Shown: piece after piece, positions 14,917 to 39,017 of the stretch
Layout of the letters: each line of letters starts with the position of its first letter
Position numbering within the stretch: position 1 is the stretch's first letter
Assembly: GCF_014205275.1 (NCBI RefSeq)
Contig: NZ_JACHND010000001.1
Coordinates: 4,216,001-4,280,000, forward strand
DNA length: 64,000 nucleotides
Origin: Sphaerisporangium siamense
GTDB taxonomy: Bacteria > Actinomycetota > Actinomycetes > Streptosporangiales > Streptosporangiaceae
Direction: 5' to 3'
Notes under the pieces: generated by a model
The model's database searches: none
Told to the model about the DNA's origin: nothing
Seen by the model: only the letters and a program-made list of their open reading frames with translations
Translations under genes and position numbers: made by a program

Positions 14917-17820
14917 TTATGCGGGTGAGCCTCGGTGGAGGCGCCAGGCCGGGGCGGTCGCGTCGCCGCCGGGGTGGATGGCGAAGGCGCGCAGTTCGAA
15001 GGTGTGGCGGCCGTCCGGGGCCGGGAGCCAGACGCCCTCGGGGGAGGGCAGCATCTCGGTGACCGTCACCGGCCCGGCGGTGCGGGCCACGTGCCGGTGG
15101 AACACCTCGATCAAGTGGCGGCTCGAGAAGTCCAGCAGCAGCGGCTTCGGCTCCTCGGGAGTGCGGTAGTACACCTGCTCCGGCATCCCCGCGCGGGCAC
15201 GCCACTCGCGCGCCGCCCTGACCAGCGACCACCCCGCGAGATCCGCGTCCCACGGCAGGCCGGGCGCCTGCCAGCGCTCCCGCTGATAGACGACGCCGCC
15301 CACGGTCAGGCGCGGGGTGTGCCCCGGCAGCGTGAACGGGTGATCCTCGACCGCGGGCAGCGTGAACGCCGCCAGCGGGTCGAACCCGGGGGCGCGCTTG
15401 AGCTGCGGATGCAGCAGCAGAGGGCCGTCCTCGTCGCACAGGGCCACGCCCGCCCCGTCGCGGCGCACCCGCAGGGCGGACGCCGGCACCGCGCCGCCCG
15501 CCGCGGGCAGGTGCGGGCGCAGCTCGACCAGCGTGTCGGCCACCCGGTACGGGAAGATCTTCGTGCCGCGCCCGATCAGCACCTGGGCCACCCGCACGCC
15601 CGCGTCGGCGAACACCTTCTCCATGAGCGCGGCGATGCGGTCGGGCCTGCCCTCCTCGCGGCGGAAGTGATCCGTCGGGAACACCGACAGCAGGGCGGGC
15701 GCGTGTCCCTCGCCGACCACGATCCGGAAGTCCCCCTCGGCGAGCGCCCGTTCGTCGCGCGCCGCGATGAGCAGGTCCACCGAGGTGAACGCGGGCAGGT
15801 CCGCGCCCGGCACGGGCACGTCCGCGAGCATCTCCCGCGCCCGTGCCGCCAGGGCGATGATCTCCTCGGCCCGCAACTCGACGTGCGACTCGCCCTCACG
15901 CCCCTCCAACAGACCACGCACCAGCCCCTCGAACCGCGCGAGCGCCGTACCAGCGCCACCCGGGGCGGCGTCACCGCCCGCGCGTGTGAGGTCGTCGCGC
16001 TGCTCCGCGGGGGTGAGGCCGCCGTGCCGGTCCCCGTAAGTGAGTTCGTCGCGCCCGGCCCCGCGGGTGGCGTCGTCCTGCCGGTCCGTGCCGCTGCCGT
16101 CGCCGTGCCGGTTCGCGCGGGTGGCGTCGCCGTGCCGGTTCGCGCCGTGCCCGGCGGTCGCCGCGCGCAAGTAGGCCAGCAGCGGGGCCTCCCCCTGCGG
16201 GGCCACGGTGTCGAGCACGCGGCGGGCGCGGACCTGCTGGTCGTGGTGGCGCAGCAGCGCGGCCGTCCTCCACAACTCCAGGACGGGGACGAGCCCGTCG
16301 CCCACCCGCCGGGTCACCGGCCCACCCAGCTCGAACCGGGTCAGGTCCCCCCGGCACTCCTCGAAGACCAGCGTCCGGTCCACGTACATGCGGCCCGCAC
16401 CGCGCCGCGCGGCCTCGCCGGTGAGCGCCTCGTAGCGCTCCTCCAGCTCCCGCGCGGCCGCGACCCCTTCGGCGCGCGACTCCGCACCGCACGCCTCGAC
16501 CAGGGACGCGAGCTCGGCGGCGGTCGCCCGCCACTCACGCACCGCCTCCTCCCCGTCCTTACCGGGGTCCTGGTCCGCGACGGCGTCCAGCCACGCGATC
16601 ACCGCGTCGAGCGGACGGGCCGTATCCGGAGCCGCGAGCGGCGCATACGTCAACAGCCGCCGCCGCACCAGCGCCTCCACCCGCCCCACGACGTCCTCCA
16701 GCACGCCGCGCGCCGCACCGCCCGACGTCCGCCCGGCCTCCTCTGTGGCCGGCGTCCGCTCGGCTTCCGTCTGCGCGAGCTGCGCCCGGTCGGACTCCGC
16801 CTGTGGGAGCCGCGTGCGCTCCGTCTCTGGCTCCGTGACCGGTGTTGGCTCGGTTTCCACCTGCGTCAGCCGCGTGCGCTCCGGCTCCGGCTCCGGCGGT
16901 CGCGTCTCCTGGGTTGTTTCGCGGGACAGCTCGCGGGCCAGTTCGCGTACCGTCAGGCCGGTCGCGGACAAGGTGATCAGGCGGGCGTCCACCGGGTCCA
17001 GGGCGGTCGCGGCGCCCGTGATCTGGCTGACGGCCCTGTCGCCGGCGAACCGGTGGGTGAGCGAGGGACGGGGACGCAGGTGGCCGCGCATCCGCGGGTC
17101 GGCGCGCACGCCGTCGGAGATCGCCTCTGCCAGGCGGGCGGAGGCGAAGACGGTGCGGGTCACGGCCGACGGGTCGCGCTCGACGCGGGCCGCCGCCGGC
17201 AGGTCCGGGTTCAGCGTGCCGTAGTTGACCGGGCCGAAATGGCTGTTGGTCTCGTTCTTGGCGGCCAGCCGCTGCAGGTAGGTGACCAGCCTGCGCTCGA
17301 TCTGGCGGTTCTCCCGGTTCTGACCGGACGGCGACGCGGCGTACTTGCGCAGGCCCTCGTGGAAGGCCGGGCTGAGCAGCAGTACCGCGTCCCGCAGCAG
17401 CGGATCGCCTGCCCGGGCCTTCAGACGCGCGGAGCACCGCGCCAGTTCGGCCTCGTGGGCGGCCGACGCGCGCGTGGCCAGCTCGGCGGCCTCCGCGAGC
17501 AGGCGGTTCCACTCCACCAGCGCAGCCGCCAGCTCCGCGCCGGGGGCGGACTCGGCTCGGGGGGCGGGGACGCGCCGGCCCACCGCCGCGCGCTGCTTGC
17601 TGAGCAGCCGCCCCGCCGCCGGCTCCGCCTCGCGCGCCGCGCGCACGGCCTCGGGGAACGCCTCGCGCAGCAGGTGCTCGCGGTGGGCCTCCGCGGCACG
17701 CTCGGCGGCCAGTACGGCGTCGACGCCCGCGGCGGTGTCCGGCAGCCGCACCTCCTCCAGCGCCTCGTACGGGAAGCCCGCCGTGCGCACCACGAGGTGG
17801 TCGTGGAGAAGCCAGCTCAT
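14917..17820 (-). CDS. LanB-like peptide aminoacyl-tRNA ligase candidate (PEARL 1)
   Basis: The 967-residue protein is built on the lanthipeptide-dehydratase N-terminal domain, with FPYEALEEVRLP at the start and the AAKNETNSHFGPVNYG block at about residue 188. It ends soon after the THTFELRAF-type C-terminal block seen in all five paralogues. The C-terminal elimination domain is absent, and none is encoded separately in the window, which is the PEARL architecture. PEARLs use aminoacyl-tRNA to extend a scaffold peptide C-terminus. Two degenerate insertions (around residues 303-360 and 560-620, rich in TE/PE and in RHGD/DD repeats) explain its extra length. It is last in the leftward operon, about 500 bases past tldE, so it may have its own promoter. 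The start at 17820 opens on MSWLLHDH; the frame extends upstream without homology. Confidence 0.83.
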   Translation of the reverse strand: MSWLLHDHLVVRTAGFPYEALEEVRLPDTAAGVDAVLAAERAAEAHREHLLREAFPEAVRAAREAEPAAGRLLSKQRAAVGRRVPAPRAESAPGAELAAALVEWNRLLAEAAELATRASAAHEAELARCSARLKARAGDPLLRDAVLLLSPAFHEGLRKYAASPSGQNRENRQIERRLVTYLQRLAAKNETNSHFGPVNYGTLNPDLPAAARVERDPSAVTRTVFASARLAEAISDGVRADPRMRGHLRPRPSLTHRFAGDRAVSQITGAATALDPVDARLITLSATGLTVRELARELSRETTQETRPPEPEPERTRLTQVETEPTPVTEPETERTRLPQAESDRAQLAQTEAERTPATEEAGRTSGGAARGVLEDVVGRVEALVRRRLLTYAPLAAPDTARPLDAVIAWLDAVADQDPGKDGEEAVREWRATAAELASLVEACGAESRAEGVAAARELEERYEALTGEAARRGAGRMYVDRTLVFEECRGDLTRFELGGPVTRRVGDGLVPVLELWRTAALLRHHDQQVRARRVLDTVAPQGEAPLLAYLRAATAGHGANRHGDATRANRHGDGSGTDRQDDATRGAGRDELTYGDRHGGLTPAEQRDDLTRAGGDAAPGGAGTALARFEGLVRGLLEGREGESHVELRAEEIIALAARAREMLADVPVPGADLPAFTSVDLLIAARDERALAEGDFRIVVGEGHAPALLSVFPTDHFRREEGRPDRIAALMEKVFADAGVRVAQVLIGRGTKIFPYRVADTLVELRPHLPAAGGAVPASALRVRRDGAGVALCDEDGPLLLHPQLKRAPGFDPLAAFTLPAVEDHPFTLPGHTPRLTVGGVVYQRERWQAPGLPWDADLAGWSLVRAAREWRARAGMPEQVYYRTPEEPKPLLLDFSSRHLIEVFHRHVARTAGPVTVTEMLPSPEGVWLPAPDGRHTFELRAFAIHPGGDATAPAWRLHRGSPA

Positions 17821-18322
17821 CGTGCCGCTCCCCGGACGTGCGGGGTGGCCGACGTGGTGGGAATCGCCATTTCTCCGCCTTCTCATCCTGCGGTATCGGG
17901 TCGCACAGCAAACTCTGTGCGACCCACGCACCGCGAACCAGGCAAAGGCAGGTCAGCAAGTTGCCGAACGATATCCGCTTCCTGCCAACCAGCGGAAGAA
18001 ATGCGAGAACCACCAAGCCGACCTGCGAAGACACGCCCGGAAGCACCAGGCACGGCGACGGACGACATGAAGGGCACGAACCGCCGCCCGGAAGGGAGCG
18101 CCCGGCGATTTCTACCTCCCCGGGCCGATCGAGGACAGCCGATGTTCATGCGGCTTACCATGACGCTCGCGCTTCCGTTTGGTGTGAGGAAGGACACCTG
18201 GCGGATTCCGCCTGCCGGCCGGTCGATGTGAGCCGATGTTCATGCGGCTGACTAGGACGCTCGCGCTTCCGTCTGGGGTTAGGTAGGGCGCCTGGCGGAT
18301 TCCGGCTTTCGGCCGGTTGAGG
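17821..18322. other. Intergenic region carrying 94-base repeats
   Basis: A 502-base gap between tldE and PEARL 1, which are on the same strand. The tldE-proximal half consists of the 94-base repeats described separately. The PEARL 1-proximal part is less GC-rich and could hold a promoter. Frames crossing it have no family signature. Confidence 0.5.
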
Positions 18323-18380
18323 TCAGCCGATGTTCATGCGGCTTACCAGGATGCTTGGGCTTTCGGCTCCGGGGGCGAGG
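18137..18380. repeat. Three tandem 94-base repeats derived from the 3' end of tldE
   Basis: GATGTTCATGCGGCT recurs at 18141, 18235 and 18329, exactly 94 bases apart, and similarity extends through the unit (for example CCTGGCGGATTCCG). The copy at 18329 is the true C-terminal coding end of tldE (VSRMNIG then stop). The other two are copies lying beyond the stop. The bases just before 18141 resemble the tail of a fourth, decayed copy. Because 94 is not a multiple of three, the copies cannot extend one frame. Confidence 0.85.
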
Positions 18381-19888
18381 TGGGAATGGGACGGGTCGTC
18401 GCCGGTTGCTGTGATGGAGCGGAGCAGTTCGAATATTCCGGAGGACAGGCGTACGGGGCCGAGGGGCTCGGCGCGTTGGCCGTCGTGCACCCTCCAGCCG
18501 AGGATCACGGTCGTGAACGTGCCCCGTCGTCCCCGGATCGCGCCCGGCTGCACCACTCCGACCGCCTCTACGCCGTCGCCCATCTCGGCGCGCAGCGCGT
18601 CCAGCGACCGCTCGCCCGCGGCGAGTGAGATGCGGGACGGGCTCTCGACGGCGGGTTGGTCCGGGGCGGCGCGCCGTGCGGCGCCCGACGGGGTTACGCC
18701 GAGTTCCGCGGCGCTGGTACGGCCGGTGAGGAAGCCGCGCAGCACCCCGCCGTCCAGCAAGGTCTGACGGCGTGTCGGCGTGCCCTCGGCGTCCACGGGG
18801 CCCGAGGGATCGTCCACGAGCGTGACGGCGGGGGAGGCGATCCGCCGGCCCACCCGCTCCAGCAGCGGGCGCATGCCGGCCAGGACGTTGCCCGCGCTGA
18901 ACAGGAAGCCCAGGCTGCGGACCAGGTGGGCCGCCACTCCGGGATGGAGCAGCACCGGGAGCGGTCCCTCCTCGTCGAGCGGCCGGGGGCCCGCGAGGTG
19001 GACGGCGCGGAACTCGCGCGCGCGTGCGGCGAGGGCGTCCCACCGCAGCTCGTCGAACCGCGAGGCGGTCAGCCCGTCGACCATGTGCCCGCCGAGCCCC
19101 TCCAGCCAGTGCCAGGCGTGGTGCCCGCTCTGCTCGTACGCCACCGCCGCGCCCGTCCCGTCGACGGCGATCGTCCAGCTACGGGTGTGGACGTACTCGG
19201 CGCCGAGACCCGCCGGACCGTCCGCCGGCGCCAGCAGCCCGGCCAACAGGCCCCGGGACGTCTCGAACGGGGCCTCCGGCTCCGCCGGTGCGGGGTGCAC
19301 GGCCGTGTCCGGGAACACCGCAGAGCGGCCGTCGTGGCCGGTCGCGGACAGGAGGGGGGCGCCGTCCGGGGTCAGGCGCGGGGAGCCCTCCGGGGTCGGG
19401 GTCAGGCGCGGGGGGCCGTCCGGGGTTGGGGTCAGGGATATCAGTGGGAGGCCGTTGTCGGCGCGGGAGCGGCGGGCCAGGGCCACTGCCAGGCGGGCCA
19501 CGTCCTCGGGGGATTCCGGCGGTGCGCCCAGTAGCAGGGCCGCGGCGCCGTCGCCGGCGCGGACCCGCAGGCCCGTGGTGGTGGTCACGCCCTGGCGGGC
19601 CGCGTGGGTGCCGTCGGCGAAGACCTGCGTGGCGCGGACCGAGGTGGACACGCACTCGACGTCGGCCGCGTCCCCACCGGCCGCCGCGATGGCGTGCAGC
19701 AGCGCACGGCATCGGTCCAGCAGCACGGCCACCTCCGCCGGCGCGGCGCCTGGGACAACGCCTGGGACAACGCCTGGGACAGCATCTGGAGCAACCTTTG
19801 GGACAGCGTCTGGAGCAACGCTTGAGGGAGCGCCTGGGACAGCGTTCGGGGCAGCGTTCGGGGTGGTGCTCGGGTCTACCGTGGTCAT
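18323..19888 (-). CDS. tldE: TldE/PmbA-like protease subunit
   Basis: The 521-residue protein matches the TldE subunit of TldD/TldE proteases: a mixed alpha/beta N-terminal half (VRATQVFADG, GLRVRAGDGAAALL) and a beta-rich C-terminal half with TLVDDPSGP, LLDGGVLRGFLTGRTSA and SPSRISLAAGERS. TldE lacks the metal site and acts with TldD to degrade or trim peptides. In PEARL pathways TldD/E-type proteins release the finished product from the scaffold peptide. The first 50 residues are a PN/VPG-rich low-complexity extension not typical of the family. The start overlaps the tldD stop by ATGA. Confidence 0.82.
   Translation of the reverse strand: MTTVDPSTTPNAAPNAVPGAPSSVAPDAVPKVAPDAVPGVVPGVVPGAAPAEVAVLLDRCRALLHAIAAAGGDAADVECVSTSVRATQVFADGTHAARQGVTTTTGLRVRAGDGAAALLLGAPPESPEDVARLAVALARRSRADNGLPLISLTPTPDGPPRLTPTPEGSPRLTPDGAPLLSATGHDGRSAVFPDTAVHPAPAEPEAPFETSRGLLAGLLAPADGPAGLGAEYVHTRSWTIAVDGTGAAVAYEQSGHHAWHWLEGLGGHMVDGLTASRFDELRWDALAARAREFRAVHLAGPRPLDEEGPLPVLLHPGVAAHLVRSLGFLFSAGNVLAGMRPLLERVGRRIASPAVTLVDDPSGPVDAEGTPTRRQTLLDGGVLRGFLTGRTSAAELGVTPSGAARRAAPDQPAVESPSRISLAAGERSLDALRAEMGDGVEAVGVVQPGAIRGRRGTFTTVILGWRVHDGQRAEPLGPVRLSSGIFELLRSITATGDDPSHSHLAPGAESPSILVSRMNIG
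19740..19860 (-). repeat. Short tandem repeats in the N-terminal tldE coding region
   Basis: Twelve-base units close to GCCTGGGACAAC recur about ten times with drift, in frame. They encode an Ala/Val/Pro/Gly-rich stretch (VPGVVPG type). Length variation by slippage would change only the N-terminal extension. Confidence 0.75.
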
Positions 19889-21615
19889 GGGCCGCTCACC
19901 GTCATGCGGGCCACCCGTAGGGTGGGCTGGCCGACCGAGACCGTCACCGGGAACTGGCCCAGCTTGTTGCACTGGTAGCCGTACGGCATGAAGCGCAGGT
20001 CGTCGCCGATCATGTCGATCTCGCGCAGCACGCCGGGCCCCGTGCCCGACAGGGTCGCCTCGCGGACGGGGGCGGTCAGCCTGCCGTTCTCGATGAGCCG
20101 CCCGGCCGTCACGCGGACGCTGAACCGTCCCGAGCTCATGTCCGTCTCGCCGGACACGATCGACTCCACGTACAGGCCGTACGGCGTCGCAGCGATGATC
20201 TCTTCGGGGGACGACCGGCCTGGCGCGACGTAGGTGCAGCTCATGCGGGGCAGCGCGGGGTAGGCGTAGCCGAGGCGCCGTCCATGGCCGTGCGGCCGCA
20301 GCCCCGCCGCCGCGGCGCTGCGCCGGTCGTGCAGGTAGGAGCGCAGCACGCCGTCCTCCAGCAGCGCCACTTCCTCGGCGTGCTCGCCCTCGTCGTCGAA
20401 GTCGTACAGGCCCGCGCCGAGTGGGGCCCGCGGCGCGTCGATCAGGGTCAGGCCCGCCGGGGACAGCAGCTCGCCGAGCAGGCCGCCGTACGCGGCGCCG
20501 GGCAGCAGCGCGACGTCCGCCTCCAGCCCGTGGCCGCACACCTCGTGCAGCAGCGCGCCCGGACCGCCCGGGGCGAGCACCACGGGCATCTCGCCCAGAG
20601 GGGGCTCGACGGCGTCCAGGTCTCGGACGGCCGCCTCCGCAGCGGCCCGCGCCAGCGCCCGGACGACGTCGTCACCCGGCGCGAGCCTCAGCGGTTCTCC
20701 CGTCGCACGAGGATGGTCGCCTCGGGTCATGGGAGTCGTGAGACCCGTGGAAGCTGTAGGAGTCATGACAGCGGTACCGATCTCGGCGCCGGCGACGCGG
20801 AGGGTACGGGCGATGACGCCGTCGCGGCGCGCGGTCGCGTGGATCCTCAGTTCCAGGTGGCGGTGCGGGCCGTGGCGCAGCAACCCGTCCTCGCGGGCCA
20901 CCAGTGTGGCGCGCTCGACGAACTCGCCGGTCACCCGGGCGGTCACGACACCGGGGAAGGCGCCCTCGACTTCGTCGGCGGCGAGCGCCACCATCCGGGA
21001 CAACTCCTCCGCCGTGGCCAGTCCGGCGTCCGCGACCGCGGCGGAGCCGTACGGAGGCGGCGCGGCAGGGGAGCCGCCGGGGGGTGCGAGGGAAGGGCGG
21101 CCGGGTGGCGTGGTGGCGGAGCCGTCGTCCGCCGGGTCGCCGGGCCGCAGGTCGTGCGGGACGGTTCCGGGCGGGCCGCCGTGTCGCCCGGTGGGACGGG
21201 CGGGTGTGGGGTCGTCGGCGAGGAGGGCGGGGAGGCGGGACGGGTCGAGGTAGGGCAGGTGGCGGTGGTGGACGCCGTCCGCCGTGGTCAGCGACAGCCC
21301 GGTGCCCTCGCGGCGGCGCTGGGCCAGCCGCAGCCCGAACCGGTCGGCGACCGCGCGGGACAGCACCCACGACTCGGCGAACACCTCGGCCCGCCGCCCG
21401 GAGCCCGCCGCAGCAGCAGCGGTGCGCAGCGCGGCATCCGGGTCGATCACCGGGAAGGCCGACGAGGTGTCTCCCTCAAGGGTGGGACGGGCCGCGTGCC
21501 GGGGCCGGGCGCCGGCTCCGGGTTCGGTGCCGTGCCGGGGTTCGGGGGCCGGGGTGGGTTCGGGGCCGTGGTCGGCGTGGCTGCCGGACCCGGGGTGGGT
21601 CAGGGGCGTGCTCAC
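19885..21615 (-). CDS. tldD: TldD-like zinc metalloprotease
   Basis: The 576-residue protein contains HEVCGH at residues 357-362, the HExxxH zinc motif of TldD, followed by the FDDEGE strand, LHDRRSA, and a C-terminal GYQCNKLGQFPVTV block with the conserved Cys. TldD/TldE cleave unfolded peptides inside a hollow heterodimer and mature microcin B17. Homologues in ammosamide-type and 3-thiaglutamate clusters process the scaffold peptide. Residues 1-45 and a stretch around 170-215 are Pro/Gly-rich insertions beyond the usual length of about 480. The GTG start overlaps the upstream PEARL stop by GTGA. Confidence 0.87.
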   Translation of the reverse strand: MSTPLTHPGSGSHADHGPEPTPAPEPRHGTEPGAGARPRHAARPTLEGDTSSAFPVIDPDAALRTAAAAAGSGRRAEVFAESWVLSRAVADRFGLRLAQRRREGTGLSLTTADGVHHRHLPYLDPSRLPALLADDPTPARPTGRHGGPPGTVPHDLRPGDPADDGSATTPPGRPSLAPPGGSPAAPPPYGSAAVADAGLATAEELSRMVALAADEVEGAFPGVVTARVTGEFVERATLVAREDGLLRHGPHRHLELRIHATARRDGVIARTLRVAGAEIGTAVMTPTASTGLTTPMTRGDHPRATGEPLRLAPGDDVVRALARAAAEAAVRDLDAVEPPLGEMPVVLAPGGPGALLHEVCGHGLEADVALLPGAAYGGLLGELLSPAGLTLIDAPRAPLGAGLYDFDDEGEHAEEVALLEDGVLRSYLHDRRSAAAAGLRPHGHGRRLGYAYPALPRMSCTYVAPGRSSPEEIIAATPYGLYVESIVSGETDMSSGRFSVRVTAGRLIENGRLTAPVREATLSGTGPGVLREIDMIGDDLRFMPYGYQCNKLGQFPVTVSVGQPTLRVARMTVSGP

Positions 21616-25954: not shown

Positions 25955-25978
25955 TGGTGTTCCTTCCGGTCCTGCGCC

Positions 25979-28928: not shown

Positions 28929-29060
28929 ATGGCCGACGAAGAGATCACCGAGACCGGCGCTGCGGAGGAGACCGATCTCGACGGCGACGAGCTCGGCGAC
29001 CTCGACGACATGGAATTCCTGCTCGAAGAGATCGAGAACCGCATCGCCCCCCTCGCCTGA
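28929..29060 (+). CDS. Acidic scaffold/precursor peptide of the PEARL pathway
   Basis: This 43-residue ORF has 17 Asp/Glu and one Arg, no Cys, Ser or Trp, and only three Thr, all in its first half. The second half (LDDMEFLLEEIENRIAPLA) looks like a helical RiPP leader and is the end of the protein, so there is no core that could become a lanthipeptide. This is what a PEARL scaffold should look like: residues are added after the encoded C-terminal Ala. GAGGAG lies nine bases before the ATG. It starts the rightward operon and is divergent to PEARL 3. The scaffold role is inferred from context and composition; no direct homologue is claimed. Confidence 0.8.
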   Translation: MADEEITETGAAEETDLDGDELGDLDDMEFLLEEIENRIAPLA

Positions 29061-29292
29061 CCCGGGCGAGCGGAGACGGTCCACCTCTGATTCACCGACA
29101 TCCGACCTTCTCGACCTGAGCGACGCGTCCATGTGATCCGCGGCGGCCAAGCCGGGGCCACGTGTGCCGCCGGAGCGGATTCGGGGCGACGTGAGCCCTC
29201 GAACCGCCGACGGCAGGGCCGCGGGCCCGCGGGGACCGGTTGAGAAGGCTTCATTCATCAAACCGACGGGATCGATGGGAGTTCAGGTACGA

Positions 29293-31182: not shown

Positions 31183-33596
31183 CCGCCTTCCGGATGCTGG
31201 ACTCCTTCGTGCTGCGGCGCGCGGGGTTCGCCCTGAGCCTGATCGACGGACTCGGCTGCCCCCGCACCGCCGCCGCGCTGCGCGAGGCCCACCTGTGGGA
31301 CGAGCGCGCCGAGGAGGCCCGCGCCCGCCTGCTGCGGCAGGTCGTCCCCGAGGAGGTCGCGCGGCTGCGCGCCTCCGGGGACCCCGGGGAGCAGGGAAGC
31401 AGGGCCGCGCTGCGCGCGCTGTCCCGGCTGCGCAGCAGGCTCGGCCGCCGCACGCGGGCCGCGCTGCCGCCGGGAGACTGGTCGCCCGCCCTGACCGGCG
31501 GGCACCGGGCCTGGACCGAGGCGCTGGAGGCCGCCGACCGGGAGGTCGCCCGCGCGGGCGGCCTCCTGGCCGAGGAGGAACCCGAGGCGGCGGCCCGGCT
31601 GCTCGCCCTCACCGGGCGCGCCGACGTCCGCGAGGCGATCTTCCTGCTGTCGCCGGACTTCCTGGAGGCCCTCGTGCGCCGGGACCTGGGCGCGGAGTCC
31701 CAGCCCGGCCGCACGGCGCGCGACCGCGCCCTGGAGCGCCGCGTCTACGCCTTCGCGCAGCGGCTCGCCGCCAAGAACGAGACCACCAGCTTCTTCGGCC
31801 CCATCTGCTTCGGCCGCGTCGACCCGGAGGCGGACACGGTCGGGCGTTCGCCCGAGACGCCGTCGGGCGTCGTGCACCGGGCGGCGTTCTTCGCCTTCTG
31901 GGCCGCGGCGGCGTGGGGAAAGGCAGCGGCCCAGATCCCGGCCGTCCGCCGCGCGCTGCCGCCGCGCCGGCTGCCCGTCGCGGTGGTCGAGGACACCCGG
32001 GCCACCATCCCCGGCCGCCCGCCCGTCGAACTGGACGCCACCGCGGTGGCGCTGCTGCGCGCCGCCGACGGCACCCGCACCCCCGGCGAGCTGTCCGCCG
32101 TCCTCGGCGTCACACCGGAGGAGACCGCGCGCCGGATCACCGCCCTCGAACGCGCGCTGCTGCTGCGCCGCGACCTGGAGCCCAGCTCCACCACCGTCCA
32201 CCCCCTGCGCGACGTGGTCGCCCGCCTGCCCGACGTGCCCGAGGCGCGGCGCTTCGTCACCGCCGCCGCCGACATGGAGGCGCTGCTGGAGCGCTTCGCC
32301 GAGGAGACGGCCGTCCCCCGGCGCACCAAGATCCTCGCCGCGGCCGAGGAGCTGTTCGAGTCCGTCACCGGCGTGCCCGCGCGGCGCAACCAGGGCCGCA
32401 CGTACGCCGACCGCTTCATCCTCTTCGAGGACTGCCGCGCCGACGACGAGCCCCTCGTCTGGCCCGCCCCGATCGCCCGCCGCGTCGAGAACGCCCTGGA
32501 CCCGGTGCTCAGGCTCGGCCTCACCGGCGGGCGCACCCAGCGCGACGGCCTGCGCGCCATCGCCGCCGAGGTGCTGGCCGGCGCGGGCGGCTCGCTGCCG
32601 TTCCTGGAGTTCGCCGACGCCCTCGCCACACGCCTCGCCGACGGGGTCTTCGAGCCCGTGCTCGACACGTGGGGACGGTGGCGCACCGCGCTGCTCGACC
32701 GCTTCCTCGCCGTCTCCGACGGCCGCCGCGCCCACCTGGACCCGCACCAGGTCGAGGACCTCATCGACGCGCCCGAGGGGTCGTTCTTCGTCAGCCCCGA
32801 CGTCATGCTGCAGAAGGACGGCGACGCGCCGCTCGTCCTCGGCGAGATCCACCCCTACGTCTTCGCCTGGGGCCTTCAGGGCGTCTTCGCGCCCGACCCC
32901 GACCGGCTCGCCCGCGACGTCGCGCCCGTCCTGGACGTCTGGGGCGGCACCGGGCGCGCCGCGACCGTCCTGCACCGCCGCCAGCACAAGGGCCTGGTCG
33001 GCGAGGCCTACCCGGGCCGTTTCATCGAGGTCGCCGGGCGCGCGGGCACCGGTCCCGAGCGGCGGCTCGCCGTCGGCGACCTGCGGGCCGTGCTCCGGGA
33101 CGGCGAACCCGAGCTGGTCGGGCCGCACGGGCCGATCTCGCTGTACGTCGGCGAGGACGACCACCCCCACCTGCGCGTCTTCGCCCCCGTGCCGGTGGAC
33201 TTCCCCCGGCTGCGCGCGGGCGCGCACACCCCGCGCCTCGTGCTCGGCGACCTGGTCGTGCAGCGTGAGCGGTGGGACCTGCCCGTGGGCGCGCTCGCGG
33301 ACATCGTGGCCGCCGAGGGACGGCTGGAGCTGTTCCGCGCCGTCACCGCCGCCCGCGAGCGCCTCGGCTGGCCCCGGCACGTCTTCGCCCTCAGCCCCTC
33401 GGAGACCAAACCGGTGTACCTCGACCTCGACGTCCCCCAGGCGCAGGAGCAGCTCCGCGTGCTCGCGGCGGCGGGCCCGCTCGCGGTCTCGGAGATGCTC
33501 CCGGGCCCGGGCGAGCTGTGGCTGGACCGCTCGGACGGCCCGCACACCAGCGAGTTCCGCGTAGCCCTGGTCGGCCACGTGCAGGCCACCCCATGA
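31179..33596 (+). CDS. LanB-like peptide aminoacyl-tRNA ligase candidate (PEARL 4)
   Basis: The 805-residue protein opens with VLRRAGFALSLIDGLG, has AAKNETTSFFGPICFG at about residue 199 and a TYADRFILFEDCRADD block near 405. It ends after VSEMLPGPGELWL and HTSEFRVALVG. It lacks both an elimination domain and the low-complexity linkers seen in PEARLs 1 and 2. It is coupled by ATGA at both ends, to the TPR protein and to the radical-SAM-like protein, so all three should be made in similar amounts. Confidence 0.84.
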   Translation: MTAFRMLDSFVLRRAGFALSLIDGLGCPRTAAALREAHLWDERAEEARARLLRQVVPEEVARLRASGDPGEQGSRAALRALSRLRSRLGRRTRAALPPGDWSPALTGGHRAWTEALEAADREVARAGGLLAEEEPEAAARLLALTGRADVREAIFLLSPDFLEALVRRDLGAESQPGRTARDRALERRVYAFAQRLAAKNETTSFFGPICFGRVDPEADTVGRSPETPSGVVHRAAFFAFWAAAAWGKAAAQIPAVRRALPPRRLPVAVVEDTRATIPGRPPVELDATAVALLRAADGTRTPGELSAVLGVTPEETARRITALERALLLRRDLEPSSTTVHPLRDVVARLPDVPEARRFVTAAADMEALLERFAEETAVPRRTKILAAAEELFESVTGVPARRNQGRTYADRFILFEDCRADDEPLVWPAPIARRVENALDPVLRLGLTGGRTQRDGLRAIAAEVLAGAGGSLPFLEFADALATRLADGVFEPVLDTWGRWRTALLDRFLAVSDGRRAHLDPHQVEDLIDAPEGSFFVSPDVMLQKDGDAPLVLGEIHPYVFAWGLQGVFAPDPDRLARDVAPVLDVWGGTGRAATVLHRRQHKGLVGEAYPGRFIEVAGRAGTGPERRLAVGDLRAVLRDGEPELVGPHGPISLYVGEDDHPHLRVFAPVPVDFPRLRAGAHTPRLVLGDLVVQRERWDLPVGALADIVAAEGRLELFRAVTAARERLGWPRHVFALSPSETKPVYLDLDVPQAQEQLRVLAAAGPLAVSEMLPGPGELWLDRSDGPHTSEFRVALVGHVQATP

Positions 33597-35188
33597 CCCG
33601 CGATAGCCGAGGCGACGGCGCCGGGCCGGGCGTGGTCGTGATCGTGCCGCCGCTCGGCGACGTCACCGTGAGCGCCGAGTGGACGGCGGGACCGCACCGG
33701 CTCCTCGACCCCGGACGCCGGTTCATCGCCCGTATCCTGGCCACGGCCCCCGCCCTCGCCGAGGACGAAGCCACGCATGACGGCTCCGCGCGCTCCGCCG
33801 GGGACGGCGCGGACGGCCAGGGGGATCGTGTCGTGCGGCTGCGCGCGGGGGTGGCCGTGCTCGCCGATCCGGCCGGGCCGATGGCGCGGCTGCGCGCCGC
33901 CGGGCTGCTGGTCCCCGCCGTCACCGAGACCCACCCTGGTTCGGCCGTCGACCTGGTCCTGGACGACCTGGAGCTGCGGGACGGCACCACGGAGGACGCG
34001 GCGGCGGCGTCGCGCGCCTCCGCGGGCCCGGCGCCGTACGACCCGGAACTGGAGGAGGCCCTCGCCGCGGTGGGCCCGGAGGACGAGGTCTGGCTGGTCC
34101 TGGAACGCGACCAGCAACTGCCCGCCACCCTCGCGCTCGCCGCTCGCCTGCCGGGCCCGGTCCACGTCACGGGCCGGTACGCCCACCAGCACTGGACCGT
34201 CCTCGCCCGCCTTTCCCCCTTGAGCACCGCACGCCTCGCCACCCCGCCCTCCCCACTGCGGTGGCGCGTCACCGGCCTCCCCGACGCCACACCTGAAGGG
34301 GAGACAGAGGTCTACTGGCGGGAGCGGGCGGCGGACCCCGTGCCGCCGGGACCGTGGGCCGGCCGGGTGAGCCTGCGCCAGGCCGTGGAGGCCCCCGGTG
34401 AGCTGGTCGCCGCCGGATGCGTGACCGCCGTCCTCGGGCTGTGCGCCGCCGACCACGAGTTCGCCGGCCGCGGCGGCTCGGTGTGGCCCGCGGAGAAGGC
34501 GCGCGCCGCCCTGGACGTCCTGCGCGCGTCCGGTGTCACCGTGCTGGCGGAACTGTGGCTCGGCGCCCCCGGCGTCCCCGCCGCCCGCGTCCGCGCCGCC
34601 GTGGAGACCCTCACCGCGCCCGGCGGCCCGGTCGGCCGTCTCGTCGGCTTGCGGCCGTTCGACTGGCCCACCCACTGGGACGACCCCCGCTGGGGTGAGG
34701 CCCGCGTGCGCTGGACCGCGAACGAGGACCGCGCGCCCGAAGAGGCCGCCACGGACGCGGGACGGCGCGAGCTCGCGCGGCACCGCGAGTTCCTCGCCGA
34801 AGGGACGCTGAGCCGTGCGGAGGTCCAGGAGCTGGTGTCCGAGATCGGCCCGGCGCTCGCGCGCGCCGGCATGCTGATCCCGGCGCGCGTCGCCGCTGCC
34901 TACCTGGCCGCCGGCTCCCCGGACGAGGGCGCGGACGGCCCGAACGGTGAGGGGGTGGCGCTGGCGGCGGACACGGTGGTGGTGCCCGGCCCCGCCGCGT
35001 CCGGCCAGTGGTACGCGGTGGACCTGCGCGCGGGCCGGATCGTCCGGCTCGACCCGCGCGTGGCGAGCCGCCTGCGGATCGGACGCCGCCCCGTGCCCGA
35101 GGCCGAGGCGCTGCCCGGCGTCGCGCCCGCGACGCGCGCCCGTGTGCTGGACGCCCTCGCCGGCGGCGGCCTGCTGATCCGGCGCTGA
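33593..35188 (+). CDS. Degenerate radical-SAM-like protein lacking the iron-sulfur cysteines
   Basis: The 531-residue protein has no clear family. Its order of elements resembles B12-binding radical-SAM proteins: an N-terminal Rossmann-like part (VWLVLERDQQLPATLALAARL), then LVAAGCVTAVLGLCAADHEF followed by ALDVLRASGVTVLAELWLGAPG, which mimics the second half of a radical-SAM barrel. There is no CxxxCxxC motif; only two cysteines occur near that block. It is therefore either a non-catalytic relative or an unrelated barrel. Its position between PEARL 4 (ATGA overlap) and PEARL 5 makes a role in the pathway likely. The function is unknown. Confidence 0.55.
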   Translation: MTRDSRGDGAGPGVVVIVPPLGDVTVSAEWTAGPHRLLDPGRRFIARILATAPALAEDEATHDGSARSAGDGADGQGDRVVRLRAGVAVLADPAGPMARLRAAGLLVPAVTETHPGSAVDLVLDDLELRDGTTEDAAAASRASAGPAPYDPELEEALAAVGPEDEVWLVLERDQQLPATLALAARLPGPVHVTGRYAHQHWTVLARLSPLSTARLATPPSPLRWRVTGLPDATPEGETEVYWRERAADPVPPGPWAGRVSLRQAVEAPGELVAAGCVTAVLGLCAADHEFAGRGGSVWPAEKARAALDVLRASGVTVLAELWLGAPGVPAARVRAAVETLTAPGGPVGRLVGLRPFDWPTHWDDPRWGEARVRWTANEDRAPEEAATDAGRRELARHREFLAEGTLSRAEVQELVSEIGPALARAGMLIPARVAAAYLAAGSPDEGADGPNGEGVALAADTVVVPGPAASGQWYAVDLRAGRIVRLDPRVASRLRIGRRPVPEAEALPGVAPATRARVLDALAGGGLLIRR

Positions 35189-35219
35189 TGGGGCGTCGGG
35201 CTTGGAGGAGGAAGAACAG

Positions 35220-37559
35220 GTGAATCGACCCGGCGGCACGTCACCGTGGACGCTCGCCCCCGTCTTCGTGCTGCGGCACGCGGGGCTGCCCTTCGACTGG
35301 GTGGAGTCGCTCGGCGCCGCCCCCGCGGTCCTCGCCGCCTGCGAGGAGGTGCTGGACGTCGAGGAGGAGCTCGGCAACGCGCTCGGCGCCGCCGCGCCGG
35401 CCGTGGTCGCCACCCTGGCCGCCGGAGGCGCCCCCTCGGTGCCGCGCGGCGCCCGCGAGATCGTCGCGCGCTGGCGGGCCGCCTACGACCGCCTGGCCGC
35501 CGCGCACGCCGGGGACCTGCCCGCGCTGCGCCGCAAGCTGCGCGACCACGCGGCCACGCCGGCGTTCAGGGACGCGGTGTTCACCTCCAACCCCGGCATG
35601 TACGAAGGGATGGTGGCCCGCTACCTGGAGCTGGACGAGGCGCCCGACGCCGCCAAGCACCGCCGCGTGGAACGCCAGCTCTACACCTACCTGCAGCGCT
35701 TCTGCGGCAAGAACGAGACGGCCAGCGCGTACGGGCCGATGGGGTACGGGCAGGTCACCGACGGGGACGGCTTCACCGTCGAGAAGGTGGCGAACCCGGC
35801 GCGGCGCGCCTTCCTCGCGTACTGGGCGGTCATCGAGCTCGCCCGCGCCGCGGCACGGGACAGGACGCTGGCCCCGCACGTGCCGATCCGCCTCAGCCTG
35901 CTCGCCCGCCGCTCCGGCGACGCCGTCGAGGTGGACGGGCTGGAGGAGCCGCTGCGGCCGGGAGCCGACGCGCTGCGGCTGGTCGCCCTCCTGGAGGAGA
36001 GGCCGGCCGGGTTCGCGGGGCTGGCCAAGGCGGCCGGCGTCCCCGCGCGCGCCGCCGTCGAGGCGCTGCGGCCGCTGCTGGCGGCGGGCGCGCTGGTCAG
36101 AGGCCTGGACGTGCCAGGGGAGCGGGTGGACCCGCTGCCCGGCCTGCGCGCGTCGCTGTCCGCGCTCCCCGCCTCCGAGGCCCGCGACGGCTGGGTGCGG
36201 CGGCTGGACGGCCTGGCGTCCCTGTGCGACCGGTTCAGCGTGGCGGCGGGCGACGTGGACGCCCGGCGCGCCGTGCTCGCCGAGCTGGAGTCCACGTTCA
36301 CCGAGCTCACGGGCGTGCCGGCCCGGCGCGGCGCGGGCGCGGTGTACGCCGACAGGCTCGTGCTGTTCGAGGAGGCCGCGTCCCCGTTCCGGCTCGTCGT
36401 CGGCCGTGACGCCGCCGCGCGCCTGGAGGCCGCGCTCGCCCCCGCGCTCGAACTGTCCGCCGCCTTCGGCGACCAGGTGCAGGGCGCGCACCGCGACGAG
36501 ATGGCGGAGATCGTCCGTCAGGCGGGCGGCGCGCTGGGATTCGCCGCGTACGCCGCCCGCGCGCGGCCGGAGCACCAGGAGGGCAGCCGGTTCTCGCCCG
36601 TCCGGCCCGTGACCGTCCCGGCGGGCGACGGGGAACCCGTGCGGCTGAGCCCGGACGCGCTCGGCCCGTCCGGCGGGGAGGCGCGGTACGCGCTGCCGGA
36701 CGTGTGCCTGGCCATGGCGTCGCCCCAGGAGGGCGCCGACGGCACCTGGCGGGTGCTGCTCGCCCGGGTCCACCACCACCTGCTGCTCACCGGCTGGCTG
36801 ACCACCTTCCACCCCGACCCCGCGGCGTTCGACCGCGCCGCCGCGGACTGGCTGGACGGCGACGGGCGGGACGTGGTCGCCCTGGCCACGAGCCGGCGCA
36901 ACAAGGGGTTCTACCGGTTCCCCGGCCCCCGGCTGGTCTTCAACGCCGCCGACCCCGACGCGCGCGAGGACAACCTGGCCGCGGCGGAGTGCGCGGTCGA
37001 GCTGCGGGACGGGCGGCCCGTGCTCGTGGACGCCGCCGGACGCGTCCGTGAGCTGTACCCGATGCTCAACGACCTCACCACCTACCCGCCGTTCGCGGCG
37101 CTGTCCCCGCCGTCGGTGCTGCACGCGCCCGTACGCGGGACGTACGGGCATCTCGGCAGGGTGACGATCGGCGACGCCTGCTACCAGCGGGAACGCTGGG
37201 CCCTGGGCACGGGCGAGCTGCCCGCGGGCGGGCGCGGCCCCTCGGCGCTGCTGGCCCTGCGCCGGCTCGCGCGCCGGCACGGCCTTCCCCGGTTCGTGTT
37301 CGCCCGTGTCGAGGCCGAGCGCAAGCCCGTCCTCGTCGACACGGCCTCTCCGTTCGCCGCCGAGTTGCTCGGCCACCTGCGCGGTGACGAGGCCGGGCCC
37401 GAGGGAGGGCAGGTGCTGGTCGAGGAGATGTACCCCGGCCCCGGCGACCTGTGGCTCCGCGACGAGTCCGGCCGCTACACCTGCGAACTCCGCATGCAAC
37501 TCACCCGCCCCGCCACCGCCCGCACCCCACCCCCTCCCACGTACGCGGAGGCCCGATGA
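35220..37559 (+). CDS. LanB-like peptide aminoacyl-tRNA ligase candidate (PEARL 5)
   Basis: The 779-residue protein opens with VLRHAGLPFDWVESLG and carries CGKNETASAYGPMGYG at about residue 164, a variant in which the usual FF is replaced by AY. It has VYADRLVLFEEAASPF near 378 and ends YTCELRMQL with a short Pro-rich tail. It has no elimination domain. The GTG at 35220 follows GGAGGAGGAAGA. A TTG at 35202 would place that ribosome site inside the gene. The changed hallmark makes it the most divergent paralogue, possibly with a different donor or acceptor. Its stop overlaps the next small ORF by ATGA. Confidence 0.82.
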   Translation: MNRPGGTSPWTLAPVFVLRHAGLPFDWVESLGAAPAVLAACEEVLDVEEELGNALGAAAPAVVATLAAGGAPSVPRGAREIVARWRAAYDRLAAAHAGDLPALRRKLRDHAATPAFRDAVFTSNPGMYEGMVARYLELDEAPDAAKHRRVERQLYTYLQRFCGKNETASAYGPMGYGQVTDGDGFTVEKVANPARRAFLAYWAVIELARAAARDRTLAPHVPIRLSLLARRSGDAVEVDGLEEPLRPGADALRLVALLEERPAGFAGLAKAAGVPARAAVEALRPLLAAGALVRGLDVPGERVDPLPGLRASLSALPASEARDGWVRRLDGLASLCDRFSVAAGDVDARRAVLAELESTFTELTGVPARRGAGAVYADRLVLFEEAASPFRLVVGRDAAARLEAALAPALELSAAFGDQVQGAHRDEMAEIVRQAGGALGFAAYAARARPEHQEGSRFSPVRPVTVPAGDGEPVRLSPDALGPSGGEARYALPDVCLAMASPQEGADGTWRVLLARVHHHLLLTGWLTTFHPDPAAFDRAAADWLDGDGRDVVALATSRRNKGFYRFPGPRLVFNAADPDAREDNLAAAECAVELRDGRPVLVDAAGRVRELYPMLNDLTTYPPFAALSPPSVLHAPVRGTYGHLGRVTIGDACYQRERWALGTGELPAGGRGPSALLALRRLARRHGLPRFVFARVEAERKPVLVDTASPFAAELLGHLRGDEAGPEGGQVLVEEMYPGPGDLWLRDESGRYTCELRMQLTRPATARTPPPPTYAEAR

Positions 37560-37663
37560 GGGCGGCGCTCCGCGACGACACCCCGCCCCCGGACCCGGTG
37601 AAGACGCCCACCCCGAACGCGATCACGCCGGACGCCTCCACACGACCAGGAGGAGACCCATGA
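37556..37663 (+). CDS. Predicted 35-residue Pro/Thr-rich peptide
   Basis: The small ORF is coupled at both ends: its ATG overlaps the PEARL 5 stop and its TGA overlaps the MFS start, each as ATGA. The product begins MRAALRDDTPPPDP and ends STRPGGDP, rich in Pro, Thr and Asp, with no Cys. It contains the GGAGGA that serves as ribosome site for the MFS gene, so it may simply be a translational bridge. A second substrate peptide is the alternative. Confidence 0.4.
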   Translation: MRAALRDDTPPPDPVKTPTPNAITPDASTRPGGDP

Positions 37664-38898
37664 GCACCGACGCCGAGATCGGACAGGACGCCCACGAGGC
37701 CCCCGTCACCGGCATGGCACGCTACCTGCGGCTCGCCGCGACCCCGGGCGCCGTGCCCATGACCGTGGCGGCGCTGGTGGGACGGCTGCCGAGCGGCATG
37801 GCGGGCCTGCTGCTCGTCACCGGCTTCGTCCAGAGCAACGGCTCCTACGCCCAGGCGGGAATCGCCGCCGCCTGCTACGCGGTCGGCGTGGGCGTGTCGG
37901 GCCCGCTGCGGGGCCGCGCGGTGGACCGGCGGGGCGCCAGGGGCGTGCTGCTGGTCGCCGGGGCCGGCCAGGCGCTCGCGTTCCTCGCGCTGCTGGCCGC
38001 CCTGGCCGCGGAGACGCCCGCGGTGGTGCCGCTGGTGTTGTCGTTCGTGGTCGGCGCGCTGCTGCCGCCGATCGGCCCGGTGATGCGGACGATGTGGAGC
38101 CGTTCGCTGACCGACCAGGGCCTGCGGTCGGCGGCCTTCGCCCTGGAGTCCGTCATCGTGGACGCGGTGTTCATCGTCGGCCCGTCGATCGTGGCCCTGC
38201 TGCTCGCGGTGTCGAACTCCGGGGTGGCCATCGGGGTGACGGCCGCGTTCACCGCCGTGGGGTGCTTCGCGCTGGCCGGGGCCCCGGCGATCGGCGCGCT
38301 GCGGCCGGTCGAGGGCGCGGCGCGCGACTGGCGCGGCCCGCTGCGCGTGGCCGGGGTGCGCTGGATGCTGCCGGTCGGGCTGCTGGCCACGGGCAGCATC
38401 ACCGGCGTGGAGGTCGCGCTGCTGGCCACGGCGGACGCCCAGGGGCACGCCGACCTCGGCGGCCTGCTGATCGCCGCGTTCTCGGTGGGCAGCGTGTTCG
38501 GCGGGTTCGCCTACGGCGCGGTGAAGCTGCGCGGCACCAGCGCGGGGCATCTCGGCGTCTTCCTCGCCGTGCTCGCCGCCGGGTACGCCGTGGCGCTCGC
38601 CGTGACGAACCTGTGGCTGCTGGCGGTGGTGTTCGCGGTGGCGGGCGTCGCGCTCGCCCCGATGATGACGGCGCAGTACACGGCGATGGAGGAGGTCGCG
38701 CCGGAGGACGCGATGACCGAGTCGTTCGCGTGGCTGAACGCCCTCGGGCAGGGCGGCGGCGCGCTGGCGGCCACGGCCGCGGGGGCGCTGGCCGCGGACG
38801 GACGCCCGGGCGGCGGGTTCCTGGTGGCCGCCGCGATGGCGGTCGCCGCGGCCCTGCTGACCCTCGCACTGCGCCGTCCCCGGGCGGTTTCCGCATGA
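37660..38898 (+). CDS. MFS transporter
   Basis: The 412-residue protein has about twelve hydrophobic helices with the short charged loops of the major facilitator superfamily (GRAVDRRGARGVLLVAGAG after helix 2, FGGFAYGAVKLRG in the second half). It is probably a proton-driven exporter, and being last in the PEARL operon suggests export of that pathway's product and self-protection. The ATG at 37660 follows AGGAGGAGA. A small hairpin spans the stop codon. Confidence 0.82.
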   Translation: MSTDAEIGQDAHEAPVTGMARYLRLAATPGAVPMTVAALVGRLPSGMAGLLLVTGFVQSNGSYAQAGIAAACYAVGVGVSGPLRGRAVDRRGARGVLLVAGAGQALAFLALLAALAAETPAVVPLVLSFVVGALLPPIGPVMRTMWSRSLTDQGLRSAAFALESVIVDAVFIVGPSIVALLLAVSNSGVAIGVTAAFTAVGCFALAGAPAIGALRPVEGAARDWRGPLRVAGVRWMLPVGLLATGSITGVEVALLATADAQGHADLGGLLIAAFSVGSVFGGFAYGAVKLRGTSAGHLGVFLAVLAAGYAVALAVTNLWLLAVVFAVAGVALAPMMTAQYTAMEEVAPEDAMTESFAWLNALGQGGGALAATAAGALAADGRPGGGFLVAAAMAVAAALLTLALRRPRAVSA

Positions 38899-38904: not shown

Positions 38905-39017
38905 TCATAAGCCGCAGCCTTCGGCGAGTGCCCACGGGGTCCGGGATGGATGGGTAGCTTGGCTTCGTCCGTACGCCGGCCGCCGGGCCGCGCGGCAGAG
39001 TGAAGGTGGGGGTGGGC

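What the first reader, a model, noticed from the sequence alone, without database searches (positions are those of the whole stretch)
14917..38898. A five-PEARL scaffold-peptide pathway inside a chromoprotein enediyne locus
Five LanB-like proteins, all without an elimination domain, sit with TldD/TldE, a glycine-oxidase-like enzyme, an exporter and an acidic Ala-ended peptide. This is the gene set of PEARL pathways (ammosamide, Bha and 3-thiaglutamate are known cases). Here it lies between a neocarzinostatin-type apoprotein and a complete enediyne PKS core. I know of no described enediyne that uses a peptide-scaffold, aminoacyl-tRNA-dependent route. The PEARL product could be the side group that anchors the chromophore in the apoprotein, or a separate alkaloid.
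Basis: partly seen in the sequence, partly recalled or inferred. Interest (0 to 1): 0.92.

Follow-up and report, generated by a model that had tools for sequence, protein, structure and literature searches.

The report
Alkaloid gene cluster beside enediyne cluster
Two antibiotic-type gene clusters, one that probably builds an alkaloid on the end of a small helper peptide and one for an enediyne, sit side by side in this bacterium; relatives carry each without the other, so they look like neighbours rather than one joint pathway.

Summary
The window (close to Sphaerisporangium album) has five LanB-like PEARLs without an elimination domain, TldD/TldE, a glycine-oxidase-like enzyme, an MFS exporter and an acidic scaffold peptide (NCBIfam Amm_Lyn leader, above cut-off). 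They lie between a curated enediyne chromoprotein gene and an enediyne PKS core. The 'TPR' gene beside the peptide is a homologue of the AmmC1/BhaC1 tryptophan trihydroxylase, so this is an ammosamide/lymphostin/Bha-type pearlin cluster. pksE is in 11 of 11 genus genomes, but the block lies beside it in 3 (one clade); in a fourth the whole block sits 2.2 Mb from pksE. Three Streptomyces carry the same kind of block, with no enediyne marker found in those genomes. Across 341 family genomes peptide and enediyne marker are unassociated (6 of 11 against 178 of 341). New is a subtype: its peptide ends ..IAPLA, three residues short of the Trp of BhaA-Ala-Trp, and it has two PEARL lineages not seen in the ammosamide-type loci read. 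I infer, untested, that these rebuild the missing Leu-Ala. In passing: contigs of another family genome (G045) carry NRPS-type PEARLs beside enediyne genes.

The parts
11838..12266 (+). Enediyne chromoprotein apoprotein (neocarzinostatin/C-1027 family); start may be 11796
   Evidence: NF040680 131.7 bits, cut-off 86; PF00960 3.5e-23; C-1027 apoprotein 2e-31
14917..17820 (-). PEARL1: lineage not seen in the ammosamide-type loci read here
   Evidence: PF04738 2e-17; P1 clade SH-aLRT 99 (quick tree)
18323..19732 (-). TldE-like protease subunit (Amm12/13-type pair)
   Evidence: PF19289 9.5e-42
19885..21384 (-). TldD-like protease subunit
   Evidence: PF19289 5.9e-56; NCBIfam TldD models 198 and 150 bits, below cut-off
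21612..24530 (-). PEARL2: groups with the AmmB2 (Trp-adding) lineage; start uncertain
   Evidence: PF04738 5.8e-19; joint clade SH-aLRT 82 and 94, with one Anoxybacillus row added 98 and 93
24857..25954 (-). Glycine-oxidase-like FAD enzyme (Amm14/BhaG type)
   Evidence: PF01266 2.9e-61; TIGR02352 174 bits, below cut-off
25979..28384 (-). PEARL3: second lineage not seen in the ammosamide-type loci read here
   Evidence: alignment; P3 clade SH-aLRT 100; no Pfam hit
28929..29060 (+). Scaffold peptide, 43 aa, ends ..DMEFLLEEIENRIAPLA
   Evidence: NF033737 42.5 bits, cut-off 30; orthologues
29293..31182 (+). AmmC1/BhaC1-like TPR protein (FMN tryptophan trihydroxylase family)
   Evidence: 33-38% to the equivalent gene in the 15 IAPLALA-type loci; residues at the places of AmmC1 Lys350/Asn432/Lys602 kept as K358/N438/K613 (matched through S. 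uncialis by position)
31179..33596 (+). PEARL4: AmmB1 (Amm8, Leu-tRNA) orthologue
   Evidence: PF04738 4.5e-19; clade 100
33632..35188 (+). Amm10-like protein (radical-SAM-like without the cysteine motif in Amm10; function unknown)
   Evidence: 29-40% to 13 of the 17 other rows, those outside Sphaerisporangium and S. huiliensis
35268..37559 (+). PEARL5: AmmB3 (Amm11, Gly-tRNA) orthologue
   Evidence: PF04738 9.4e-16; 39-42% to 7 orthologues of other genera of the family; clade 100
37660..38898 (+). MFS exporter, right end of the pearlin block
   Evidence: PF07690 2.2e-18; kept in G001, G004, G007 and in the three Streptomyces
39000..45172 (.). Genes that go with the enediyne core, not with the pearlin block: GCS2, FAD/NAD oxidoreductase, 187-aa protein, two CMD proteins, SnoaL
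   Evidence: most are beside the core in G002, G003, G005, G006, G009 without PEARLs (GCS2 not seen in G006, 187-aa gene not in G009); not seen in the stretches held of G007, G008, G010
45172..58509 (+). Enediyne core: DUF1702 x2, UnbV-type, 330-aa protein, PKS, thioesterase, flavin reductase, P450
   Evidence: pksE in 11 of 11 genus genomes

Best explanation
14917-38898 is a self-contained pearlin cluster of the ammosamide/lymphostin/Bha (pyrroloiminoquinone) kind, next to but independent of an enediyne cluster. Proposed working: PEARL2 (AmmB2-like) adds Trp from Trp-tRNA to the peptide; the C1 flavoprotein oxidises the indole to a hydroxyquinone; PEARL5 (AmmB3 orthologue) adds Gly to the quinone; the glycine oxidase releases glyoxylate and leaves an aromatic amine; PEARL4 (AmmB1 orthologue) brings a second nitrogen; TldD/TldE release the product; the MFS protein exports it. 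Gene identities are shown by homology; every reaction is transferred from the amm/bha pathways. Special to this subtype: the peptide ends at ..IAPLA, while BhaA-Ala-Trp reads ..VAPLALAW, so I infer that PEARL1 and PEARL3 first add Leu and Ala (this part alone about 0.4). The confidence given is for 'self-contained pyrroloiminoquinone-type pearlin cluster, not part of the enediyne pathway'.
For: Peptide family hit. AmmC1/BhaC1-like gene with the three modelled substrate-contact residues kept (residues from PMC9850906). PEARL4 and PEARL5 fall in the AmmB1 and AmmB3 clades, PEARL2 with AmmB2 more weakly. The plus-strand half (peptide, C1, PEARL4, Amm10-like, PEARL5) keeps the order of the S. uncialis ammosester locus except that the AmmB2-like gene is on the other strand (Amm8, 9, 11, 18 named as LanB-like in PMC8210675). 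Independence: G007 block 2.2 Mb from pksE; same kind of block in 3 Streptomyces without PF08012; peptide against PF08012 in 341 genomes 6 of 11 against 178 of 341, hypergeometric P 0.56; the three linked genomes are one pksE clade and G007 lies elsewhere. Subtype: 7 of 7 actinobacterial ..IAPLA loci have both P1 and P3 lineages; 0 of 15 ..IAPLALA loci show a P1 or P3 best hit within the stretch held.
Against: No quinone reductase (Amm17/BhaH type) was found in the window; the only hit in the genome is weak (30% identity, 1.4e-5) and about 4 Mb away. The AmmB4 (Arg) lineage, needed in amm for TldD/E release, is missing from the window and from G007 but present in G004, S. huiliensis and I05A-00742, and by position in G001. 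The Leu-Ala idea is confounded by ancestry (the seven ..IAPLA loci are one lineage in each PEARL clade), and Saccharothrix, whose peptide ends ..IAPLGL and lacks only one residue, also has sisters of both extra lineages. The apoprotein is found in exactly the three genus genomes in which block and core are adjacent, which is compatible with a link.
Confidence: 0.85

Rival explanations
1. The PEARL product is the side group of the enediyne chromophore: the released aromatic amine is joined to the enediyne and anchors it in the apoprotein.
For: Adjacency of block and core in 3 genus genomes, 101 bp from the MFS gene to the first enediyne-side gene in the window and in G004. The apoprotein is found only in those three of 11.
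Against: Blocks separate in G007 and in 3 Streptomyces. In 7 of 11 genus genomes pksE is present and the peptide not found. The right arm of the enediyne cluster has candidate side-group genes of its own: sugar genes, glycosyltransferase, Trp dioxygenase, kynureninase-like protein, AMP-ligase, two acyltransferases. The three linked genomes are one clade.
Confidence: 0.05
2. PEARL1 and PEARL3 do not rebuild Leu-Ala but add residues after Trp, or carry out other amine transfers, and the C1 enzyme of this subtype accepts Trp closer to its recognition site.
For: In amm and bha other PEARLs add Leu, Arg or Asn (PMC12424672; PMC11117183). Saccharothrix has both lineages with only one residue missing. 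The AmmB4 lineage is absent in the window, so another ligase might do the release-marking step.
Against: BhaC1 did not accept substrates with the residues before Trp deleted, and bha already uses a PEARL to supply a missing Ala (PMC9850906). The segment DMEFLLEEIENRIAPLA lines up with DIDFDLEEIEDKVAPLA without a gap.
Confidence: 0.45
3. Two independent products that are made together: adjacency was kept by selection because the compounds act together or share export or regulation.
For: Adjacency kept in three species (pksE identity 98 and 88% to the window) although right-arm enediyne genes of the window were not found in the stretch of G001 held.
Against: Those three are one clade; G001's adjacent apoprotein copy carries a stop near its end; none of the block's 12 genes looks like a regulator.
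Confidence: 0.1

Closest known systems
Ammosamide (amm), ammosester (ame) and lymphostin (lym) clusters
   Same: Amm_Lyn scaffold peptide, AmmC1-type TPR flavoprotein, orthologues of AmmB1, AmmB3 and (weaker) AmmB2, Amm10, glycine oxidase, TldD/E
   Different: Peptide ends at IAPLA instead of reaching IAPLALA; two extra PEARL lineages; no AmmB4, quinone reductase, halogenase or methyltransferase seen in the block; genes split on two strands around the peptide. S. uncialis and Salinispora loci were compared, the amm cluster itself was not held
bha cluster of Alkalihalobacillus halodurans
   Same: Scaffold peptide with a very similar acidic recognition segment; a PEARL supplies the residue before Trp (PMC9850906)
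   Different: BhaA stops one residue short of PLALA, the window peptide two; bha enzymes were not compared here, only an Anoxybacillus relative (L117)
Unnamed pearlin blocks of Streptomyces huiliensis, S. buecherae and Streptomyces sp. I05A-00742
   Same: Same gene set around the same peptide end; same order in the first two
   Different: No enediyne marker found. S. huiliensis adds an AmmB4-type PEARL and a 184-aa gene; S. buecherae adds a quinone-reductase-like gene; I05A-00742 is split over two contigs and has further PEARLs
Chromoprotein enediyne clusters (C-1027, neocarzinostatin, kedarcidin)
   Same: Curated chromoprotein apoprotein and enediyne PKS core
   Different: A pearlin block and several unrelated genes lie between apoprotein and core; these clusters are recalled, only their apoproteins were compared
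SnaE, NRPS-linked PEARL-like enzyme (PMC11212132, passages read)
   Same: PF04738-only ligase in a non-RiPP cluster, like the two G045 genes
   Different: The window's PEARLs come with a scaffold peptide and belong to other clades than the G045 genes; SnaE itself was not aligned

Membership tests
Pyrroloiminoquinone-type pearlin cluster | Scaffold peptide of the Amm/Lyn family | tested here: met
   NF033737 42.5 bits, cut-off 30
Pyrroloiminoquinone-type pearlin cluster | PEARLs: LanB glutamylation-type domain without elimination domain | tested here: met
   PF04738 in 4 of 5, the fifth by alignment and tree; PF14028 in 0 of 5
Pyrroloiminoquinone-type pearlin cluster | AmmC1/BhaC1-type Trp trihydroxylase | tested here: met
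   homologue beside the peptide, contact residues kept; activity not tested
Pyrroloiminoquinone-type pearlin cluster | Orthologues of the Gly-adding and Trp-adding PEARLs and a glycine oxidase | tested here: met
   PEARL5 in the AmmB3 clade (100), PEARL2 with AmmB2 (82-94, weaker), DAO protein
Pyrroloiminoquinone-type pearlin cluster | TldD/TldE pair | tested here: met
   PF19289 in both
Pyrroloiminoquinone-type pearlin cluster | Accessory, not defining: quinone reductase (Amm17/BhaH) in the block | tested here: not met
   none in the window; one weak hit elsewhere in the genome
Pyrroloiminoquinone-type pearlin cluster | Product is a Trp-derived aminoquinone alkaloid | not testable with these tools
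   needs metabolite analysis
Chromoprotein enediyne cluster | Enediyne PKS core | tested here: met
   pksE at 75-98% identity in the 10 other genus genomes
Chromoprotein enediyne cluster | Chromoprotein apoprotein that belongs to this cluster | tested here: inconclusive
   equivalog met, but 27 kb from the GCS2 gene and present in only 3 of 11 genus genomes with pksE
Enediyne pathway that uses a scaffold-peptide, aminoacyl-tRNA route | PEARL block inherited together with the enediyne core | tested here: not met
   separate in G007 and in 3 Streptomyces; no genome-level association

The most novel reading that the evidence does not exclude
In this Sphaerisporangium clade the two clusters have been joined: the PEARL-made aminoquinone is attached to, or carried with, the enediyne in the chromoprotein, making the first enediyne that depends on aminoacyl-tRNA and a scaffold peptide. 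Not excluded, because block, core and apoprotein are adjacent in the same three species, and in none of the other eight genus genomes searched.
Probability: 0.05. Interest if true: 0.88.

Novelty: new variant of a known kind. Interest (0 to 1): 0.45.

Why it matters
It extends the few characterised pearlin clusters with a subtype found in Sphaerisporangium and Streptomyces, and predicts a measurable chemistry: a scaffold peptide that is finished by tRNA-dependent ligases before the working Trp is added. That would turn 'which PEARL adds which residue' into a matching problem between peptide ends and ligase lineages. It also warns that adjacency of two clusters, even in three species, can be one historical event. 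The G045 contigs give a better candidate for a real enediyne-PEARL link.

Tried and rejected
Rejected: (1) PEARL block as part of the enediyne pathway: fails separability. (2) My first reading that the block lacked an AmmC1-type hydroxylase and held an unrelated TPR protein: wrong, because PMC9850906 describes BhaC1/AmmC1 as TPR flavoproteins. (3) My early guess that the 201-aa gene of other loci is AmmC1: it hits NADPH-dependent FMN reductase, read here as the Amm17/BhaH-type quinone reductase. (4) Four stretches were first scanned in a non-coding frame (18279-19043, 21823-22644, 23548-24519; 31295-33268); the coding frames were scanned. (5) A careful tree with bootstraps did not finish; the trees reported are quick ones with SH-aLRT only. 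The trees use 14 of the 50 loci besides the genus genomes. For one search I dropped 30 of the 74 rows: 15 (L089, L109, L103, L122) were replaced by rows from longer stretches, 15 (L104, L111, L118 and one Anoxybacillus row) were not. One search dropped two long I05A rows. (6) Solved structures gave little for the PEARLs: best hit a lantibiotic dehydratase domain protein at 1.5e-4. (7) Structure prediction and fold search were not used.

Limits: the listings were cut, so the enediyne-PEARL linkage check across 341 genomes covers only the rows listed and was done by eye. Loci carry at most 10 kb on each side, so a missing gene there may lie outside. Contigs of several genus genomes end near the loci. 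Completeness of the three Streptomyces genomes is not told.


Full report
What is there. The window is G000:C1:4216001-4280000, in an 8.5 Mb genome of 2 contigs. Genus mate G001 has a contig of the same length and content as Sphaerisporangium album NZ_QOIL01000022.1, so the window is Sphaerisporangium or very close. The finding's genes are real: five PEARLs, TldE, TldD, a glycine-oxidase-like enzyme, an exporter and a 43-aa acidic peptide. The peptide passes the curated cut-off of NF033737, the ammosamide/lymphostin leader family. To the left is a curated enediyne chromoprotein gene, closest to the C-1027 apoprotein among solved chains. To the right is an enediyne PKS core; genes typical of such clusters run on for about 40 kb beyond the window, among them sugar genes, an epoxide hydrolase, a UvrA-like protein, Trp dioxygenase, a kynureninase-like protein, an AMP-ligase and two acyltransferases. 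That these belong to the enediyne is my reading.

What the block is. 29293-31182 has weak TPR hits only, but PMC9850906 (passages read) describes BhaC1/AmmC1 as a TPR-containing FMN enzyme that trihydroxylates a C-terminal Trp, and the window protein is a homologue of the gene next to the peptide in all seven clusters outside the genus that one search found in the family (35-39%). The S. uncialis residues nearest in number to AmmC1 Lys350, Asn432 and Lys602 are K349, N431 and K599, and the window has K358, N438 and K613 in the same alignment columns; AmmC1 itself was not aligned. 33632-35188 is an Amm10 homologue. PMC12424672 (two parts of five and passages read) calls Amm10 conserved, radical-SAM-like without the cysteine motif, and of unclear role.

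PEARL assignments. In quick maximum-likelihood trees (74 rows; 68 rows; SH-aLRT only) PEARL5 falls with the S. uncialis gene in the Amm11/AmmB3 position (Gly-tRNA; support 100), PEARL4 with the Amm8/AmmB1 position (Leu-tRNA; 100), and PEARL2 next to the Amm9/AmmB2 position (Trp-tRNA; 82 and 94). The match of S. uncialis genes to Amm numbers is mine, from gene order and from PMC8210675 (passages read) naming Amm8, 9, 11 and 18 as LanB-like and Amm9 as AmmB2. The Amm18/AmmB4 lineage (Arg-tRNA) is present in G004, S. huiliensis and I05A-00742, and G001 has an 863-codon open frame in the same place; it is absent from the window and from G007. PEARL1 and PEARL3 form two lineages with no member from the five IAPLALA-type loci in the tree.

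The short peptide. BhaA-Ala-Trp ends DIDFDLEEIEDKVAPLALAW (PMC9850906); its last Ala and Trp are added by PEARLs. The window peptide ends DMEFLLEEIENRIAPLA, with no gap needed, so it lacks the residues that correspond to Leu, Ala and Trp. BhaC1 did not accept substrates with the residues before Trp deleted. In 15 of the 50 loci I read a peptide with IAPLALA: five end there and ten run on for a few residues. In these fifteen no gene had PEARL1 or PEARL3 as best hit within the stretch held. All seven actinobacterial loci whose peptide ends IAPLA (window, G004, G001, G007, S. huiliensis, S. buecherae, I05A-00742) have both. An Anoxybacillus peptide also ends IAPLA; its PEARLs could not be matched to P1 or P3. 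I infer that PEARL1 and PEARL3 add Leu and Ala. Against this, the two classes are also two lineages, and Saccharothrix (..IAPLGL) has sisters of both extra PEARLs although it would need only one residue.

Does it belong to the enediyne? pksE occurs in 11 of 11 genus genomes searched. The PEARL block is next to it in 3 (window, G004, G001); in 7 the peptide was not found, though some of these have other LanB-like genes elsewhere. In G007 the whole block, peptide included, lies at 154-176 kb while pksE is at 2.38 Mb on the same 7.5 Mb contig. The genes between the block and the core (GCS2, oxidoreductase, CMD, SnoaL) stay with the core in five genomes without the block, one or two of them missing in G006 and G009; they were not seen beside the core in the stretches held of G007, G008 and G010. 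In G003 homologues of the window's left-flank genes are followed by other ORFs and then by GCS2 and the core, without apoprotein or PEARLs. On a pksE tree the three linked genomes are one clade and G007 lies elsewhere, with G010, so the linkage counts as one event.

Wider tests. In 341 genomes of the family the peptide is in 11, the enediyne marker PF08012 in 178, both in 6, as expected by chance (P 0.56). The count treats genomes as independent, and PF08012 includes weaker hits that may not be enediynes. By contrast, all 26 genomes with a strong PF00960 hit (57 bits or more; my cut) have PF08012 (P 2e-8, same caveat); of the other 50 genomes with weaker PF00960 hits (76 in all), some have no PF08012. 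So the apoprotein family does go with enediynes. Of 7 genomes behind pearlin loci, PF08012 was found in 2, S. uncialis and Saccharothrix, each on another contig than the pearlin genes, and not in S. huiliensis, S. buecherae, I05A-00742, Anoxybacillus or Myxococcus. S. uncialis makes an enediyne and ammosesters (PMC8210675, passages read).

Print. Searches for enediyne with PEARL or aminoacyl-tRNA ligase (20 of 52 listed), with lantibiotic dehydratase and apoprotein (25 of 36 listed), with Sphaerisporangium, and with lantibiotic dehydratase, NRPS and aminoacyl-tRNA listed no paper that I could see joining the two; I judged from listings and abstract starts except where passages are named. Two searches on pearlins showed no account of this subtype in the listings. 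PMC11212132 mentions enediyne only in a reference title. PMC11117183 and PMC11962472 were read as passages, PMC12550832 as its first part of four. Subscription papers are mostly not held.

An exception worth following. In G045 (81% complete, 6% contaminated) a PF04738-only ligase ends 71 bp upstream of a DUF1702 gene that is 69% identical to the window's, after a carrier-protein fragment and a condensation domain. A second contig of G045 has an NRPS, another such ligase, a DUF1702 gene and a P450 fragment 70% identical to the window's. These ligases form their own clade with one from G063 and resemble the NRPS-linked type described for SnaE. A search of 394 class genomes found relatives of the first ligase in 12; none of the 17 short loci returned showed DUF1702.

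Verdict. The remaining interest is the short-peptide subtype and the G045 contigs.

Noticed in passing
L150:2112-5554 and L151:1490-18139 (G045 contigs C503 and C553): NRPS-type PEARL-like ligases sit beside enediyne DUF1702 genes, one of them ending 71 bp upstream on the same strand: a candidate for an enediyne pathway that really uses an aminoacyl-tRNA ligase.
   Followed up: partly
G001:C15:113017-113334(-), in L027: The apoprotein copy next to the block in S. album has a stop near its end and lacks one of the window's cysteines; G001 has a second PF00960 copy on contig C45.
   Followed up: partly
window 37559-37660: The AmmB4-type (Arg) PEARL that stands here in G004 and, by position, G001 is absent in the window and in G007.
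   Followed up: partly
L105:1810-1989: The Actinomadura craniellae scaffold peptide encodes a Trp directly after IAPLALA (..IAPLALAWAEASR), the position that PEARLs fill elsewhere.
   Followed up: no
L090-L098, L100-L102, L125 (Myxococcus, Pyxidicoccus, Archangium and kin): A PEARL5-like gene at 43-46% identity sits with an AmmB2-like PEARL, an Amm10-like protein and a glycine-oxidase-like gene, and in 11 of these 13 loci a C1-like gene; no scaffold peptide was found with my pattern in the seven loci searched for one.
   Followed up: partly
window 12515-13102: A KptA/Tpt1 RNA 2'-phosphotransferase gene follows the apoprotein in the window, G004 and G001.
   Followed up: no
window 7800-11546: Two neighbouring proteins share a Golvesin C-terminal domain, one with GHL10, one with an amidase.
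   Followed up: no
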